Positions 7,721 to 41,149 of a DNA stretch of 64,000 bases are shown one piece after another. The notes beneath the pieces were generated by a model. The model saw only the letters and a program-made list of their open reading frames with translations. It was not told the DNA's origin and did no database searches. The translations under genes and the position numbers were made by a program. Every line of letters begins with the position of its first letter. Position 1 is the first letter of the stretch. This stretch comes from Limnohabitans sp. Jir61 (GTDB taxonomy: Bacteria; Pseudomonadota; Gammaproteobacteria; Burkholderiales; Burkholderiaceae_C). The stretch spans positions 124,001 through 188,000 of the forward strand of contig NZ_NESD01000003.1 of the NCBI RefSeq assembly GCF_003063545.1, given 5' to 3'.

Positions 7721-9426
7721 ATGACATTCGCCGCACCATTTTGTGGGTGATCTTTGGTTTCTCCATGGTTCTTTTGTGGGACCAATGGCAAGTTCACAAC
7801 GGAAACAAGGCCACGTTTTTCCCAACGCCTGCACAGCAAGCCAAAGTAGCGCCAGATGCTGCTTCTGCCTTACCGCAAGCGGCAGGCGTACCAGCGGCAG
7901 TTTTGCCACAAGGCACCGCAGCAGCAGTTCCTTCGGTTGAAACGCGTGCAGCTACCAAAGAGTTGGTGCAAATCGAAACAGACGTTGCCAAAATCAGTTT
8001 TGACACAGAAGGCGGCACCTTGGTGCGTCTTGAGTTGTTGAAGCATGCGGATGAACACAAGCATGGCAGCAATGTGGTGTTGCTGGATGACAGCAAAGAC
8101 CGCATCTATACCGCACAAACGGGTTTGATTTCCAGCGTTCCCGGCGTGGCATTGCCTACACATAAATCAGTGATGACGGTCCGCCCAGGCGCACGCCAAC
8201 TCAAAGAGGGTGACAACGAGTTGTCCATTACGTTTGAATCTGCGGCACAAGGTGGCGTGAAACTGGTAAAGACCTACACCGTCAAGCGCGGCGCTTACGA
8301 CATGGTTGTGAAGCACGACATCGTGAACACAGGCGCACAAGATGTGGCGCCTCAGTTGTATTTCCAATTGGTGCGTGACGGCAACAAGCCTACTGGCGAA
8401 TCTTCGTTTTACTCCACCTTCACTGGCCCTGCGATTTACACAGAAGCCAAGAAATATCAAAAGGTGGAATTTGCTGACATCAAAAAGAAAAAAGTAGATG
8501 TTGAAAAGCAATCCACCACAGGCTACATCGCCATGGTGCAGCATTACTTTGCCAGCGCTTGGATCTTGCCCGAGGGCATGAGCCGTGACATTTCAATCGA
8601 TGCCGTGGATATTGGTTCCACCATGCCCGATTGCTGCTACCGCGTGACGATGATTTCTCCTTTGGAGGCTATCAAACCGGGTCAGACAAAGAGCATTGCT
8701 GCCACCTTGTACGCTGGCCCACAAGAAGAGAAAAAACTCGAAGCTCTTTACCCAGGGTTGGAGTTGGTCAAAGACTACGGCTGGTTGACCATTTTGGCCA
8801 AGCCTTTGTTTTGGTTGTTGCACCAACTCAACAACATTTTGGGAAACTGGGGCTGGTCTATCGTCAGCTTGGTGGTCTTGCTCAAAGCGGCGTTCTATTG
8901 GTTGAATGCACACGCTTACCAAAGCATGGCCAAGATGAAAGCCATCAATCCAAAAATCATGGAAATGCGCGAACGTCTCAAAGACAATCCGCAACAAATG
9001 CAAATGGAGATGATGAAGATTTACCGCGAAGAAAAGGTCAACCCCATGGGTGGTTGCGTTCCTATCGCGCTTCAAATTCCGGTGTTCATTGCCTTGTATT
9101 GGGTGTTGTTGTCGACAGTTGAAATTCGCAACGCACCTTGGATGGGCTGGATTCACGACCTGTCAGCGCCGGACCCGTACTTCATTTTGCCCATCTTCAT
9201 GACGCTGACCACAATGTTGCAAACAGCATTGAACCCCGCGCCACCAGATCCTATGCAAGCCAAAATGATGTGGATCATGCCGCTGGCCTTCAGCGTGATG
9301 TTCTTCTTCTTCCCTGCCGGCTTGGTGCTCTACTGGATCACCAACAACGTGTTGTCAATCACTCAGCAGTGGCTCATCAACACGCGCATGGGCGTGCCAC
9401 CACAATTCAACTTGCCCAAGTTCTGA
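7717..9426 (+). CDS. yidC: Membrane protein insertase YidC
   Basis: 569 residues. An N-terminal membrane anchor (about 5-22) is followed by an Ala/Pro-rich linker, a large periplasmic beta-supersandwich domain (about 70-350), then the conserved five-helix insertase core (about 360-550). The core includes the cytoplasmic coiled region [20 protein letters not shown] and [20 protein letters not shown]. It inserts and folds inner-membrane proteins alone or with SecYEG. It starts at the ATG overlapping the yidD stop and is followed by a strong terminator. Confidence 0.97.
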
Positions 9427-36658: not shown

Positions 36659-39616
36659 TTACTCGCCGATGGGTCGCAGGTGTTTGCCAGCAATGCCTGC
36701 CAGTTCAAACATGGTGACTTGGTCTTTGCCGAACACGGGTTTGAGTTTGGCGTCCGCGTTGATGGCGCGTTTGTTGGTGGCGTCTTGCAAGCCGTTGGCC
36801 TTGATGTAGTCCCACAGCTTTTTGATCACCTCGGTGCGGGCCACGGCTTCTGCGCCAATCACGTTGGCTAGGTCAGCGCTGGGCAGATAGCCCGCGGTGA
36901 CTTTGCGTGGTGCTTTGGGCTTGGCTACTTTTTCGGCTTTTGCTTTGGTGGCCTTAGTCGTTTTAGCGGGTACTTTTTTACCAGCCGCTTTGATGAGCGC
37001 GTTGGTCGTGGGCGTCTTGCCGCCCTTGGGCGGGTACTTGCTCACGCGGGGTTCAAACGCAAAGTTCACCTTGCCGGCTTCGGCATCCCATTGCAAGAAG
37101 GCCTTGAACGAACGGCGTGTGCGCATGGACACAAACTTGTCGAGCAAGTCGGTTTTGCCCTCAGACAACAGCTTGGTCATTTGCTCACGCTCGACGGGCT
37201 GCTGCAAGATGATCTTGCCACTCTTAAAGTCGCAGCTCGGTGTGGCTTGTGCGTGCGTGGGCACAGCCTTGCTACACACGTAATTGCTGCCGTGTTCGTG
37301 AACGGGGCTGCCGCACTTGGGGCAGTTGCCCAAAGCGGGTGCATCACTGAACTCCACGATTTCGCCGGAGTCTGCGCCGTCATCACCGAAGTCGAATTCG
37401 AGTTTCCAGTTTTGGTCTTCCTCGCTGTACTTGAGGGCGATCTCAGCCGTGAACGGCCAGCCCGCTTTGGAGCGAAAGCCATCAAGTGGGCCAATCTTTT
37501 TGTTGGTCAAAAATTCTTCCACTTCAGCCGCATCAAACGTGCGGCCGCCCGGAATTTTGCTGATGGAGAAGCCACAACCTGCGCCGTTTTCGCCCGAGTC
37601 AGACGCGCTGCCGTCTTTGCCTACGCAGGCGTATCGACGGTAGTTTTCTTTCACCACGCCGCCGCACTTGGGGCAGGGTGTTTTGAGGGTGGCGTAGTCA
37701 CCGGGGATGGTGTCGCGGTCAAACTCTTTGGCCTTCTTGACGATGTGCTCAGTCATCTCGGCAATTTCGCGCATGAATTCTTCGCGGCTGAGTTGGCCGT
37801 GTTCCATGAGCGAGAGTTTGTGTTCCCAGCCGCCTGTGAGTTCGGGCTTGGACAACTCTTCCACGCCCAAGCCACGCAGCAGCGTGAACAGCTGGAAGGC
37901 TTTGGCGGTGGGAATCATCTCGCGGCCATCGCGGATGATGTATTTCTCATTCAACAAGCCTTCGATGATGGCCGCACGTGTGGCGGGTGTGCCCAAGCCT
38001 TTTTCTTGCATGGCTTCGCGGAACTCGTCGTCTTCCACCAGTTTGCCTGCGCCTTCCATCGCGCCCAGCAACGTGGCTTCGCTGTAGCGGGCAGGTGGGC
38101 GGGTTTTCAGGCCTTTGGCGTCGGCTGATTCGTTCTTAGCCGCTTCGCCTGCTTTCAAAGCGACGAGGGTTTTGCCGTCTTCTTCGTTGTCAGAGGCCTC
38201 TTGCGCGGCGTCTTTGCCGTACACGGCCATCCATCCGGCGTTGACCAACACTTTGCCTTCGGTGCGGAAGTTGTGCTCTTTGCCAGCGGCTTTGACTGTG
38301 CTGATGCGTGTGGTCACCATGTATTCAGCACTCGGGAAGAACACCGCCATGAAGCGGCGCACCACCAAGTCGTACAGCTTTTGTTCGGCTTCAGACAAAC
38401 CGCTAGGCGCTTGCAAGGTGGGGATGATCGCAAAGTGATCACTGACCTTTTTGTTGTCAAACACGCGTGGCAGTTTGCGCACGTAGTTGTTGTTCAGCGC
38501 GACGGTGGCGTGTTGTTCGAGGTGCTTCATGCCACTGTCGGCCAACATGGTGAAGGTGTCTTTCACTACCGACACGTAGTCTTCAGGCAAGTGGCGTGAA
38601 TCGGTACGAGGGTAGGTCAGCGCTTTGTGGCGCTCGTACAAACTTTGCGCGAGGGCCAAAGTGGTTTTGGCAGAGAAGCCAAAGCGGCCGTTGGCTTCGC
38701 GTTGTAGCGAGGTCAGGTCAAACAAACCGGGGCTGGCTTTGGTGGTGGGTTTGCTCTCTTCGGTGACGGTGGCTTGCTGGTTGCGCACGGCGTCAGCAAT
38801 GGCCAAGGCTTCGGCTTCGCTCCACACGCGGTCGTGTTTTTTCTCGCCGTCTTCGGCGTCTTTTTTGTGCTCGGGGTTGAACCACTTGGCGGGGTAAGCG
38901 CCTGCAGCAACTTGGAATGACGCGTGAATTTCCCAATAGTCGCGGCTGATGAACTTGCGAATTTGTTCTTCGCGCTCCACCACCACCGACAGCGTAGGCG
39001 TTTGCACACGGCCCACGGTGGTCAAGAAGAAGCCACCCTCGCGTGAGTTGAAGGCAGTCAAGGCACGCGTGCCGTTGATACCCACCAGCCAGTCGGCTTC
39101 CGAACGGCTGCGTGCTGCGTCGGCCAAGCCTTGCATTTGTTGTTGGGTCCGTAAAGAGTCAAAACCATCACGAATGGCTTGCGGCGTCATCGACTGCAAC
39201 CACAGGCGCTTCACAGGTTTGTCGAGTGGCTTTTTGCCGCCTGCGTACTGCTCGATCAAACGGAAGATCAATTCACCTTCGCGGCCCGCGTCACAGGCAT
39301 TGATGAGGGCAGTCACGTCTTTGCGCTTGGCCAGCTTCACCACCGCGTTCAAGCGGCTCTTGGTTTTCTCGACGGGCTTCAAGTCGAAGAAGGGTGGGAT
39401 CACGGGCAGGTTGGCAAAGCTCCACTTGCCGCGCTTGACGTCGAATTCTTCGGGCGCTTGGATTTCCACCAAATGGCCCACGGCACTGGAGACGACATAG
39501 GTGTCGCTCTCAAAGTGATCGTCGTGTTTTTCGAACTTCCCCGCCACAGGCGTGAGTGCGCGCACGATGTCTTGCGCGACCGAAGGTTTTTCGGCAATCA
39601 CGAGGGTTTTGCTCAT
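36659..39616 (-). CDS. topB: DNA topoisomerase III with C-terminal SWIB domain
   Basis: 985 residues. It is a type IA topoisomerase that relaxes and decatenates DNA. The N-terminal TOPRIM domain (KTLVIAEKPSVAQDIVRAL, DAGREGELIFRLI) is followed by the catalytic core, with the active-site Tyr in ALTYPRTDSRHLPEDY. Two Cys-rich finger regions start at CPKCGGVVKENY and CPKCGSPVHEHG. Beyond the usual TopB end comes a Lys/Ala-rich linker (about 871-909), then a SWIB/MDM2-type domain (about 910-985, RTEVIKKLWDYIKANGLQD and VTMFELAGIAGKHL). E. coli TopB has 653 residues and neither addition. ATG 39616 has an AGGAAC site. Confidence 0.93.
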   Translation of the reverse strand: MSKTLVIAEKPSVAQDIVRALTPVAGKFEKHDDHFESDTYVVSSAVGHLVEIQAPEEFDVKRGKWSFANLPVIPPFFDLKPVEKTKSRLNAVVKLAKRKDVTALINACDAGREGELIFRLIEQYAGGKKPLDKPVKRLWLQSMTPQAIRDGFDSLRTQQQMQGLADAARSRSEADWLVGINGTRALTAFNSREGGFFLTTVGRVQTPTLSVVVEREEQIRKFISRDYWEIHASFQVAAGAYPAKWFNPEHKKDAEDGEKKHDRVWSEAEALAIADAVRNQQATVTEESKPTTKASPGLFDLTSLQREANGRFGFSAKTTLALAQSLYERHKALTYPRTDSRHLPEDYVSVVKDTFTMLADSGMKHLEQHATVALNNNYVRKLPRVFDNKKVSDHFAIIPTLQAPSGLSEAEQKLYDLVVRRFMAVFFPSAEYMVTTRISTVKAAGKEHNFRTEGKVLVNAGWMAVYGKDAAQEASDNEEDGKTLVALKAGEAAKNESADAKGLKTRPPARYSEATLLGAMEGAGKLVEDDEFREAMQEKGLGTPATRAAIIEGLLNEKYIIRDGREMIPTAKAFQLFTLLRGLGVEELSKPELTGGWEHKLSLMEHGQLSREEFMREIAEMTEHIVKKAKEFDRDTIPGDYATLKTPCPKCGGVVKENYRRYACVGKDGSASDSGENGAGCGFSISKIPGGRTFDAAEVEEFLTNKKIGPLDGFRSKAGWPFTAEIALKYSEEDQNWKLEFDFGDDGADSGEIVEFSDAPALGNCPKCGSPVHEHGSNYVCSKAVPTHAQATPSCDFKSGKIILQQPVEREQMTKLLSEGKTDLLDKFVSMRTRRSFKAFLQWDAEAGKVNFAFEPRVSKYPPKGGKTPTTNALIKAAGKKVPAKTTKATKAKAEKVAKPKAPRKVTAGYLPSADLANVIGAEAVARTEVIKKLWDYIKANGLQDATNKRAINADAKLKPVFGKDQVTMFELAGIAGKHLRPIGE

Positions 39617-39657
39617 TTCAAAGTTCCTTAAAAACTGACCACTACAATTCGTTCTCT

Positions 39658-39704
39658 CGCGTGCGCACGCGCGCCCATGCGCGCGCACGCACATGCGTAC
39701 GTAT
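39658..39704. promoter_or_regulatory. 47-bp alternating purine-pyrimidine tract (Z-DNA prone)
   Basis: Between the divergent topB and SET genes, bases 39658-39674 and 39676-39704 alternate strictly between pyrimidine and purine, mostly CG and CA/TG steps; base 39675 breaks the pattern. Such tracts flip to left-handed Z-DNA under negative supercoiling. The tract must overlap or adjoin both promoters, and one of the genes encodes a topoisomerase. Confidence 0.8.
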
Positions 39705-39725
39705 TAAAGTTAACAGAAAAATTCA

Positions 39726-40343
39726 GTGTCCAAAAAATCTCTTGCCCAAGCCCCCGCGCCCATCCAAGGCCGTCGCATTCAAACCCGTCGCTCAGGCGTG
39801 CATGGCAAGGGCGTTTTCGCACTGACAGACTTCGCCAAAGGCGAGACCATCATTGAGTACGTGGGCGAGATCATCAGCTGGAAAGAGGCGCTGCGCCGCC
39901 ACCCGCACGATCCCACCGACCCCAACCACACGTTTTACTTTCACATCGATGAAAAGCATGTGATTGACGCCAAGTACGGCGGCAACTCGTCGCGTTGGAT
40001 CAACCACTCATGCAAGCCCAGCTGCGAGCCAGATGAAGAAAACGGCCGCGTGTTCATCAAAGCCATCCGCGACATCAAGGCCGGCGAAGAACTGAACTAC
40101 GACTACGGCTTGGTCATCGACGCGCCCATGACCAAAGAGCTCAAGCTCGAATACCCCTGCTGGTGTGGCGCGAAAAAGTGCCGTGGCACTTTGTTGTCTT
40201 CCACCTCGGAGTTCCCGAAGGACGACAAGCACAAGGCAAAAAAGGCAGACAAGCCCAAAAGCAAACCAGCTAATGCCAAAGATAAGGACGACAAAAAGAA
40301 GTCGGCCAAGAAAGCCGACAAGGCCAAATCTAAAAAGGCCTGA
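39726..40343 (+). CDS. SET-domain protein lysine methyltransferase, lysine-rich tail
   Basis: 205 residues. The SET domain (about 15-140) has HGKGVFALTDFAKGETIIEY, the SAM/pseudoknot motif RWINHSCKPSC (90-100) and ELNYDYG (122-128) with the catalytic Tyr. The post-SET zinc motif is CWCGAKKC (145-152, C-x-C-x4-C). The last 42 residues are about half Lys, with Ala, Asp, Ser and Pro, like a histone H1 tail. SET enzymes methylate protein lysines; bacterial examples are known in Chlamydia, Legionella and Bacillus. It starts with GTG and no strong ribosome site. It is divergent from topB-SWIB and five bases ahead of birA. Confidence 0.92.
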   Translation: MSKKSLAQAPAPIQGRRIQTRRSGVHGKGVFALTDFAKGETIIEYVGEIISWKEALRRHPHDPTDPNHTFYFHIDEKHVIDAKYGGNSSRWINHSCKPSCEPDEENGRVFIKAIRDIKAGEELNYDYGLVIDAPMTKELKLEYPCWCGAKKCRGTLLSSTSEFPKDDKHKAKKADKPKSKPANAKDKDDKKKSAKKADKAKSKKA

Positions 40344-40348
40344 GCCGC

Positions 40349-41149
40349 ATGATCTGGCCCGCTGAAGACCTCTGGCTTGCGATGGTTGCTTTGCAGCCAG
40401 GCTTGACGGTCGAGGTGCTGCCAGAGATTGATTCCACCAACACCGAGCTCATGCGCCGCGCACGCGCTGGCCAAACCGAACCCGTGCTGCTGGTGGCCGA
40501 AACCCAAACCGCAGGCCGCGGCCGCTTAGGCCGCCAATGGCACGGTGAAGCTGGGCATTCACTGATGTTTTCGCTGGGGATGATGCTCAAACCTACCGAT
40601 TGGTCTGGCCTGTCCTTGGCCGTGGGCCTATCTCTGGCGCGGAGCCTAGATCCGCAGGGTGAGCTAGGCGTGCGCCTGAAGTGGCCCAACGACTTGTGGG
40701 TGAAGCGCCCTGATACCCCCACGGGCTGGGGCAAGTTGGTGGGCATCTTGATCGAGACGGCTTTGCCCACGGGCATGAGCTACAACGGTGAGCAAGGTCG
40801 TTATTGCGTGGTGGGCGTAGGCATCAACATCGCCCCGCCGGTGGCTGACGACTTGTCCACCGCGCCCTTGGGCCTGCAAGACCTGCAAAGTGGCATCACC
40901 GCACCCGAAGCTTTGATGAAGGTGGCAGAGCCCTTGTTAGCCACCTTGCTGGCGTTTGAACGCACAGGCTTTGCACCACTGCAAAATGCTTTCAATGCCC
41001 GCGATGCACTGAGCAACTTGAACGTCACCCTGAGCGATGGCCGTCACGGCGTGGCAAGGGGTGTGGATGCCACCGGCGCAATGCTGGTGCACACCGAACA
41101 AGGCCAAGAGGCCATCAGCAGCTCAGAGGTGAGCGTGCGGCCGGTTTAG
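40349..41149 (+). CDS. birA: Biotin-[acetyl-CoA-carboxylase] ligase
   Basis: 266 residues, without the N-terminal DNA-binding domain of E. coli BirA, so it is probably a pure ligase. Motifs: IDSTNTELMRRA near 28, biotin loop QTAGRGRLGRQWHG near 52, LKWPNDLWVK near 109 and VVGVGINI near 150. It attaches biotin to the carrier protein of acetyl-CoA carboxylase. In related genomes coaX (pantothenate kinase) usually follows; it is not present here. Confidence 0.95.
   Translation: MIWPAEDLWLAMVALQPGLTVEVLPEIDSTNTELMRRARAGQTEPVLLVAETQTAGRGRLGRQWHGEAGHSLMFSLGMMLKPTDWSGLSLAVGLSLARSLDPQGELGVRLKWPNDLWVKRPDTPTGWGKLVGILIETALPTGMSYNGEQGRYCVVGVGINIAPPVADDLSTAPLGLQDLQSGITAPEALMKVAEPLLATLLAFERTGFAPLQNAFNARDALSNLNVTLSDGRHGVARGVDATGAMLVHTEQGQEAISSSEVSVRPV

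What the first reader, a model, noticed from the sequence alone, without database searches (positions are those of the whole stretch)
36659..40343. Divergent topB-SWIB and SET-domain genes: a candidate protein-lysine-methylation module for DNA topology
Seen: TopB carries a Lys/Ala-rich linker (about 871-909) and a C-terminal SWIB domain. The neighbouring divergent gene encodes a SET methyltransferase with intact RWINHSC and ELNYDYG motifs, a post-SET zinc cluster and its own Lys-rich tail. Known: SWIB fused to a topoisomerase, SET enzymes and histone-like Lys-rich proteins occur together in Chlamydia; SWIB and SET are otherwise typical of eukaryotic chromatin. Inference: the SET enzyme may methylate the Lys-rich linker of TopB, its own tail or another H1-like protein, and so couple methylation to supercoiling. 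The SWIB-TopB fusion may be widespread in Burkholderiales; the link to SET is what I would test.
Basis: partly seen in the sequence, partly recalled or inferred. Interest (0 to 1): 0.78.

Follow-up and report, generated by a model that had tools for sequence, protein, structure and literature searches.

The report
Conserved Z-DNA-type tract beside topB-SET
In a common family of freshwater and soil bacteria, the DNA between a topoisomerase gene and a histone-methyltransferase-like gene usually keeps an unusual letter pattern that could flip into left-handed Z-DNA, which suggests a natural sensor of DNA twisting that can be tested directly.

Summary
TopB (36659-39616, -) carries a Lys/Ala-rich linker and SWIB. 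The divergent SET gene (39726-40343, +) has intact catalytic and post-SET motifs. SET is beside topB in at least 131 of 150 family genomes.

The proposed SWIB/methylation link is only partly supported. The pairing is as common without the SWIB tail (61) as with it (66). SET's Lys-rich tail occurs in 10 of 65 relatives. TopB's Lys/Ala tail also occurs without SET, and is nearly Lys-free in one family where SET adjoins topB. The real block is topB / SET-birA.

The surprise is the 109-bp gap. It holds TACAAT, then an alternating purine-pyrimidine (Z-DNA-type) tract, the only run of at least 24 bp in the 2.63-Mb genome. Runs of 16-56 bp recur in 53 of 65 relatives and 68 of 72 named loci (two shared). 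Letters differ while alternation is kept. Runs of at least 18 bp: 53 in 12.4 kb of gap, 2 in 1.01 Mb of flank. I read it as a supercoiling-sensing element of topB and SET-birA. Z-formation, promoter use and SET's substrate are untested. Elsewhere SET directly follows gyrB (15 of 15 SET-bearing genomes of one genus).

The parts
36659..39616 (-). topB, DNA topoisomerase III with C-terminal SWIB domain (985 aa)
36884..37006 (-). Lys/Ala-rich linker of TopB (about residues 871-911)
   Evidence: tails of relatives
36677..36883 (-). SWIB domain of TopB (residues 912-980)
   Evidence: Pfam PF02201, 86.6 bits
39617..39725 (.). 109-bp divergent intergenic region
39643..39648 (+). TACAAT hexamer, -10-like, pointing to SET; TACAAT present in the gap of 56 of 65 and 71 of 72 relatives
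39658..39704 (.). Z-DNA-type alternating purine-pyrimidine tract (17-bp and 29-bp runs with a short interruption)
39726..40343 (+). SET-domain protein lysine methyltransferase gene (205 aa)
39804..40109 (+). SET domain (residues 27-128)
   Evidence: Pfam PF00856, 90.7 bits
40158..40190 (+). post-SET Cys cluster, residues C145-C152 and following, with C96
40218..40343 (+). Lys-rich C-terminal tail of SET, in a minority of the family
40349..41149 (+). birA-type biotin-protein ligase, 5 nt after SET; usual third gene of the block
   Evidence: Pfam BPL_LplA_LipB 45 bits and BPL_C 28 bits

Best explanation
This is a conserved divergent regulatory unit of the Comamonadaceae-type family. topB lies on one side and a SET-birA gene pair on the other. 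The short gap usually holds a TACAAT hexamer followed by an alternating purine-pyrimidine tract. Proposed working: the two genes transcribe away from each other, which underwinds the gap. When negative supercoiling is high the tract flips from B- to Z-DNA, absorbs twist and changes transcription at the shared promoter region. topB (a type IA topoisomerase that relaxes negative supercoils) and SET-birA expression would then follow local supercoiling. SET is an intact, largely vertically inherited SET/post-SET lysine methyltransferase that works inside the bacterium. Its substrate is unknown; the best candidates are Lys/Ala-rich DNA-binding tails (the stand-alone SWIB protein first, TopB's tail second). 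Shown: gene order, motif integrity, and recurrence of the alternating tract where letters differ. Predicted only: the Z transition, by a simple two-state energy model. Inferred: the effect on transcription, feedback, and any substrate.
For: Tract length and place: 29 bp plus 17 bp, the longest runs of the 64-kb window. 53 of 65 relatives have a strict run of 16 bp or more in the gap, 52 of the 53 distinct. Second, named set: 68 of 72; two of its loci are the same as family loci. Runs of 18 bp or more: 53 in 12.4 kb of gap against 2 in 1.01 Mb of flank; 65 in 18.8 kb against 1 in 593 kb. Whole genomes: the own genome has three overlapping matches to a 24-bp pattern and one to a 28-bp pattern, exactly what the window's 29-bp run gives. 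Of the 22 genomes whose 28-bp places were printed, 19 have one in front of topB or SET. Letters change, alternation stays: transitions to transversions 251:98 inside tracts, 387:493 in the rest of the gap, over 90 close pairs. Pure dinucleotide repeats are at most 10 bp and hairpin stability equals phase-preserving shuffles, so it is neither a simple microsatellite nor a stem. Energy model with parameters from PMC3024258: most Z-prone site of the window (critical sigma -0.0376; next best -0.0405) and of its neighbourhood in 58 of 65 loci. Three of six SET-less relatives whose topB upstream region could be read keep a run of 17-21 bp there, so the tract goes with topB's upstream region rather than with SET.
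Against: 12 of 65 loci lack a strict 16-bp run; some of these look like interrupted tracts, others (L077, L079, L089, L105, L108, L126) have no clear tract. Of the SET-less relatives G026 has no run of 8 bp (L057) and L058 and L061 have 11 bp, little above background. The TACAAT box has no evident -35 partner, and topB's own promoter was not located (one search found one weak site). Some 8-mers exceed phase-preserving shuffles (GCACGCAC 37 against 17.1; CACGCACA 30 against 9.7), as a protein-binding array would also give. The 90 pairs are not independent. 93 of 150 genomes have no 28-bp run anywhere. The tract is a feature of one family: the 20 outgroup topB upstream regions read had runs of at most 12 bp. 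The energy model ignores competing transitions and uses an assumed 5-kb domain.
Confidence: 0.5

Rival explanations
1. The tract is a binding array for a sequence-specific regulator or nucleoid protein that happens to like CG/CA steps; Z-DNA is never formed.
For: GCACGCAC, CACGCACA and a TGTGCATAT-type end are over-represented against phase-preserving shuffles.
Against: 52 of 53 tracts are distinct; strict alternation up to 56 bp and the excess of transitions inside are more than a motif array needs.
Confidence: 0.25
2. One reading: SET methylates the Lys-rich linker of TopB (or its own tail) and so couples methylation to supercoiling.
For: Fixed divergent neighbours in the family; intact motifs; Lys/Ala-rich TopB tails are common and shorter in several SET-less outgroups; SET also adjoins gyrB or topB in other lineages.
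Against: No difference with or without SWIB; Lys/Ala tails without SET; nearly Lys-free tails in f6 where SET adjoins topB; SET tail in 10 of 65 only; birA an equally constant neighbour.
Confidence: 0.1
3. Ordinary conserved synteny: topB, SET and birA are neighbours by descent without a functional link, and SET has an unrelated substrate (one SET-domain enzyme, BurB, acts on methionine; abstract start in a listing).
For: 63 of the 65 adjacent SETs fall in one clade (98/95); topB and birA stay together after SET loss (L056-L059); elsewhere SET sits beside unrelated genes; the histidine kinase gene is also kept near by in 26 of 32 SWIB-clade loci.
Against: metX and metW are beside topB in only 2 of 65 loci, both of the genus, so the block outlasts its surroundings; the tract needs another explanation; a topoisomerase neighbour recurs (gyrB in 15 of 15 SET-bearing genomes of one genus).
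Confidence: 0.4
4. The tract is a neutral relic: an old dinucleotide repeat drifting mostly by transitions, which keep alternation.
For: Transitions preserve purine-pyrimidine alternation by nature.
Against: It recurs across many genera while the rest of the gap diverges; the flanks hold 2 such runs in 1.01 Mb.
Confidence: 0.07
5. SET is an effector injected into host nuclei, like BtSET or LegAS4.
For: BtSET of Burkholderia is described as such (PMC3980110 and PMC7819608, passages seen); weak hit to the AnkI/LegAS4 model, 42 bits against a cut-off of 550.
Against: Present in 141 of 150 family genomes, with relatives in Limnohabitans, Polaromonas and Hydrogenophaga records, and beside topB and birA in the family loci read. 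Secretion was not tested.
Confidence: 0.04

Closest known systems
NCBIfam PRK14724 (DNA topoisomerase III) / TopB-SWIB
   Same: Whole-length match, 1825 bits; the architecture is already a named family.
   Different: Nothing in the protein; what is new is the conserved gap in front of it.
SET/post-SET protein lysine methyltransferases (KMT2A-like; chlamydial and archaeal SETs)
   Same: Pfam SET, NHSC and ELxxDY motifs, CxCxxxxC post-SET cluster.
   Different: Free-living bacteria; beside topB or gyrB; substrate unknown.
Chlamydial SET + SWIB + topoisomerase I-SWIB set
   Same: Same three domains in one genome; a joint chromatin role was proposed (PMC6426960, passages).
   Different: There a topoisomerase I-SWIB fusion (same passages); here topoisomerase III, fused in only part of the family, with SET as fixed divergent neighbour.
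Z-DNA-forming alternating CG/CA inserts in supercoiled plasmids
   Same: Sequence class and predicted transition energy (parameters from PMC3024258, passages).
   Different: Natural, conserved, in front of a chromosomal topoisomerase gene.
Supercoiling-sensitive topoisomerase promoters (gyrA, gyrB, topA; recalled, no call)
   Same: Would tie topoisomerase supply to supercoiling.
   Different: Those rely on discriminator or promoter geometry (recalled); no Z-tract that I know of.

Membership tests
TopB-SWIB (PRK14724) | full-length TopB core plus SWIB | tested here: met
SET/post-SET lysine methyltransferase | SET domain above Pfam cut-off | tested here: met
   90.7 against 22.4 bits
SET/post-SET lysine methyltransferase | NHSC, ELxxDY with Tyr, post-SET Cys | tested here: met
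   N, H, C and Y positions kept in 64-65 of 65 family rows; the Ser of NHSC is Ala in 26
SET/post-SET lysine methyltransferase | methyl transfer to lysine | not testable with these tools
   needs enzyme assay
Z-DNA-forming element | long alternating purine-pyrimidine run rich in CG and CA/TG | tested here: met
   YR steps in 53 tracts: CG 353, CA 220, TG 89, TA 39
Z-DNA-forming element | transition at plausible supercoiling | tested here: met
   model only, critical sigma -0.0376 in the window, median -0.039 over 65 loci
Z-DNA-forming element | Z-form in the cell | not testable with these tools
   needs footprinting or Z-alpha ChIP
SET effector (BtSET/LegAS4 type) | match to the AnkI/LegAS4 model above its cut-off | tested here: not met
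   42 bits against 550
SET effector (BtSET/LegAS4 type) | secretion | not tested
   66 with and 61 without SWIB; SET tail in 10 of 65
   PF07432 in 0 of 40 family genomes; other H1-like families not searched

The most novel reading that the evidence does not exclude
A whole bacterial family uses a natural Z-DNA switch, often the only long one in the genome, as the supercoiling sensor of a topoisomerase gene. The divergent SET methyltransferase is part of the same topology circuit, as its second home directly behind gyrB in other lineages suggests.
Probability: 0.4. Interest if true: 0.88.

Novelty: new variant of a known kind. Interest (0 to 1): 0.7.

Why it matters
Whether Z-DNA does anything in living bacteria is an old open question. 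Here a Z-prone tract sits where one would expect it, in front of a topoisomerase gene and between divergent genes, and is kept across a family while its letters change. That gives a small natural element whose role can be settled with reporters and footprinting in harmless strains. It also moves the SET genes of these bacteria from putative host effectors towards conserved genes of free-living cells that lie beside topoisomerase genes.

Tried and rejected
SWIB-dependent pairing: rejected. SET Lys tail as general substrate: rejected. TopB Lys tail tied to SET: not borne out by f6 and by SET-less lineages with Lys-rich tails, though several SET-less outgroups have short tails. Chlamydial Hc1-type substrate: no match in 40 genomes. 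topB-metX as a conserved neighbour: found in 2 of 65 loci only. A null of 450-bp windows included the tract windows themselves and is not used. The motif patterns missed variants (its post-SET pattern matched nothing) and were replaced by the alignment. Hairpin or microsatellite reading of the tract: rejected. Paper searches that found nothing on the point: SET domain + gyrB + lysine methyltransferase + bacterial (0 papers); topoisomerase III + SWIB (0); Z-DNA + topB (1 review, passages unrelated); Z-DNA + Burkholderiales (1 unrelated, listing only). The broader Z-DNA search gave 95 papers, of which 20 were seen as a listing. Only open-licence PMC papers are held. Structure prediction was not run; sequence evidence for SET was enough.
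Full report
Observation. topB is 36659-39616 on the minus strand with a SWIB domain at residues 912-980; SET is 39726-40343 on the plus strand, and a biotin-protein ligase gene (birA) starts 5 nt after it. The genes are divergent across 109 bp.

How general is the pairing? In the window's GTDB family (f1; named relatives are Limnohabitans, Polaromonas, Hydrogenophaga, Ramlibacter, Rhodoferax, Variovorax and others) 150 genomes were searched. SWIB matched in 148, SET in 141 and TopB in 149. Joining the printed coordinates: SET is divergent and within 0.9 kb of topB in 66 genomes whose TopB alignment reaches the SWIB end, in 61 whose alignment stops before it and in 4 partial ones, 131 of 150. 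The other 19: seven listed genomes without SET (six without a SWIB tail, one with); two whose SET hit lay far off on the same contig (G017, later found adjacent; G079, 8 kb); four on other contigs (G045 and G131 later found adjacent; G065 lies at contig edges; the SET of G140 falls outside the family clade); and six whose TopB was not in the printed list, two of them also without SET. Of the 77 family loci read, 65 have SET beside topB, and birA follows in 63 of those 65; L125 ends too early and L063 has none, its genome having a second SET with birA elsewhere. metX and metW are there in 2 of 65, the two congeners; the histidine kinase is near by in 26 of 32 SWIB-clade loci. SET-less relatives L056-L059 keep topB and birA side by side. 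In the tree 63 of the 65 adjacent SETs fall in one clade of 70 rows (98/95), which also holds the own genome's second SET; L105 and L108, with longer gaps and no tract, fall outside it. dN/dS between the two congeners is 0.10 for the SET core and 0.03 for TopB.

What the pairing does not depend on. It does not depend on SWIB (66 against 61). A Lys-rich SET tail is seen in 10 of 65; many other family SETs end soon after the post-SET cluster. TopB's Lys/Ala tail is old: it is in most order genomes read, with or without SET, although several SET-less outgroups have short, mixed tails. In f6, where SET touches topB, the tails of the three loci read have one or two lysines next to the core and then none. 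Among 194 order genomes outside f1, SET associates with SWIB (34, 10, 33, 117; odds ratio 12) and with TopB (35, 9, 57, 93; 6.3); inside SWIB-positive genomes SET and TopB are independent. These counts are not corrected for relatedness. The own genome's stand-alone SWIB protein has about 100 residues of PAKKVAAKK-type repeats before its SWIB domain (L171), which makes it the better histone-like candidate substrate; in other relatives that tail is short (L175-L177). That remains inference.

The gap. While reading the 109-bp gap I saw an alternating purine-pyrimidine stretch. It contains the two longest such runs of the window, 29 and 17 bp, one after the other. In 65 family loci with adjacent genes, runs of 18 bp or more number 53 in 12.4 kb of gap and 2 in 1.01 Mb of the same loci outside it. 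A strict run of 16 bp or more is in 53 of 65 gaps; counted within 450 bp of topB it is 51, median 23 bp; the longest is 56 bp. In 80 named loci from another collection, 72 were scored as adjacent, 6 end at a contig edge and 2 were not scored (L284 has topB beside SET but a topB match that starts at residue 120; L290 has SET alone). 68 of the 72 have a run of 16 bp or more and 71 have TACAAT; runs of 18 bp or more are 65 in 18.8 kb against 1 in 593 kb. Two of the 72 are the same sequence as family loci, so the sets overlap a little. Whole-genome scans: with 24 bp, 32 of 60 genomes have a match, and the own genome's three overlapping matches are those of the window's 29-bp run, so it has one such run. 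With 28 bp, 57 of 150 genomes have a match. Places were printed for 22 of these, and in 19 of the 22 a place lies in front of topB or SET; G107, G079 and G022 are the exceptions.

What is conserved is the alternation. 52 of 53 tracts are different sequences; the longest pure dinucleotide repeat is 10 bp; hairpin energy does not differ from shuffles that keep the phase (mean z -0.19). In 90 close pairs transitions outnumber transversions 251 to 98 in the tract and are outnumbered 387 to 493 in the rest of the gap (pairs overlap, so the p-value is not to be taken literally). With the B-Z energies printed in PMC3024258 (table and junction passages; other constants recalled; domain of 5 kb assumed) the tract is the most Z-prone site of the window, critical sigma -0.0376 against -0.0405 for the next and -0.0498 for the median 500-bp bin. 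The gap is the most Z-prone site of its neighbourhood in 58 of 65 loci. Of 53 loci with a tract 45 have TACAAT, and in 32 of these 45 the tract starts 7-11 bp after it. If TACAAT is the -10 box of SET-birA, transcription starts at the tract's edge. That start site is a prediction.

To which gene does the tract belong? Of six SET-less relatives whose topB upstream region could be read, three keep it (L056 21 bp, L062 19, L059 17), two have 11 bp (L058, L061) and one has none (L057); L060 is cut off. In G079, where 8 kb separate topB and SET, only short runs remain before each (11 and 12 bp). The 20 outgroup topB genes read have at most 12 bp. So the tract arose with, and is mostly kept with, the divergent topB arrangement of this family.

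A second topoisomerase link. In f6 the order is dnaA, dnaN, gyrB, SET, then topB convergent (gyrB seen in 3 of 4 genomes, the fourth at a contig edge; topB in 4 of 4). In genus g171 of family f31 SET follows gyrB directly in all 15 genomes with a SET match (gyrB confirmed by Pfam), with a 1-3 bp gap in 10 of the 12 measured; G345 of another genus also has gyrB-SET (L212). Other SETs outside f1 that were read lie elsewhere, among unrelated genes or 4-17 kb from topB. Since gyrB and topB are both near the origin in some of these lineages, one ancestral position could explain all of it, so this counts as a pointer, not as independent proof.

Judgement. The family-wide topB / SET-birA block and the alternating tract are solid. 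That SET methylates TopB is possible but has no specific support. Prior art: a SET, SWIB and topoisomerase chromatin system was proposed for Chlamydiae (PMC6426960, passages), and the TopB-SWIB architecture is a named family. I found no paper on a Z-DNA element at topB in the searches, nor on SET beside gyrB or SWIB with topoisomerase III in those.

Noticed in passing
L161, L162, L216, L248-L259 (genus g171): SET gene directly downstream of dnaA-dnaN-gyrB, mostly 1-3 bp after the gyrB stop, in 15 of 15 SET-bearing genomes seen; possible replication/topology operon member.
   Followed up: partly
L131-L133, L263 (family f6): SET lies next to a convergent topB (after gyrB where the contig reaches); in L131-L133 the topB tail has lost nearly all its lysines.
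   Followed up: partly
L171 (G000:C1:814427-814642): Stand-alone SWIB protein of the window's genome with about 100 residues of PAKKVAAKK-type repeats, histone H1-like.
   Followed up: partly
L172, about 8811-9254: Second SET gene of the same genome (147 aa), overlapping the end of an upstream glmS-like gene (SIS and glutamine amidotransferase domains).
   Followed up: partly
L173, about 8549-8968: Third, very divergent SET gene divergent to an OsmC-YcaO fusion gene.
   Followed up: partly
L068 and L186 (G079): Family genome with about 8 kb between topB and SET; the tract is short on both sides.
   Followed up: partly
L063 and L183 (G017): Genome with two SET genes of the family clade: one beside topB without birA, the other beside birA.
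   Followed up: no
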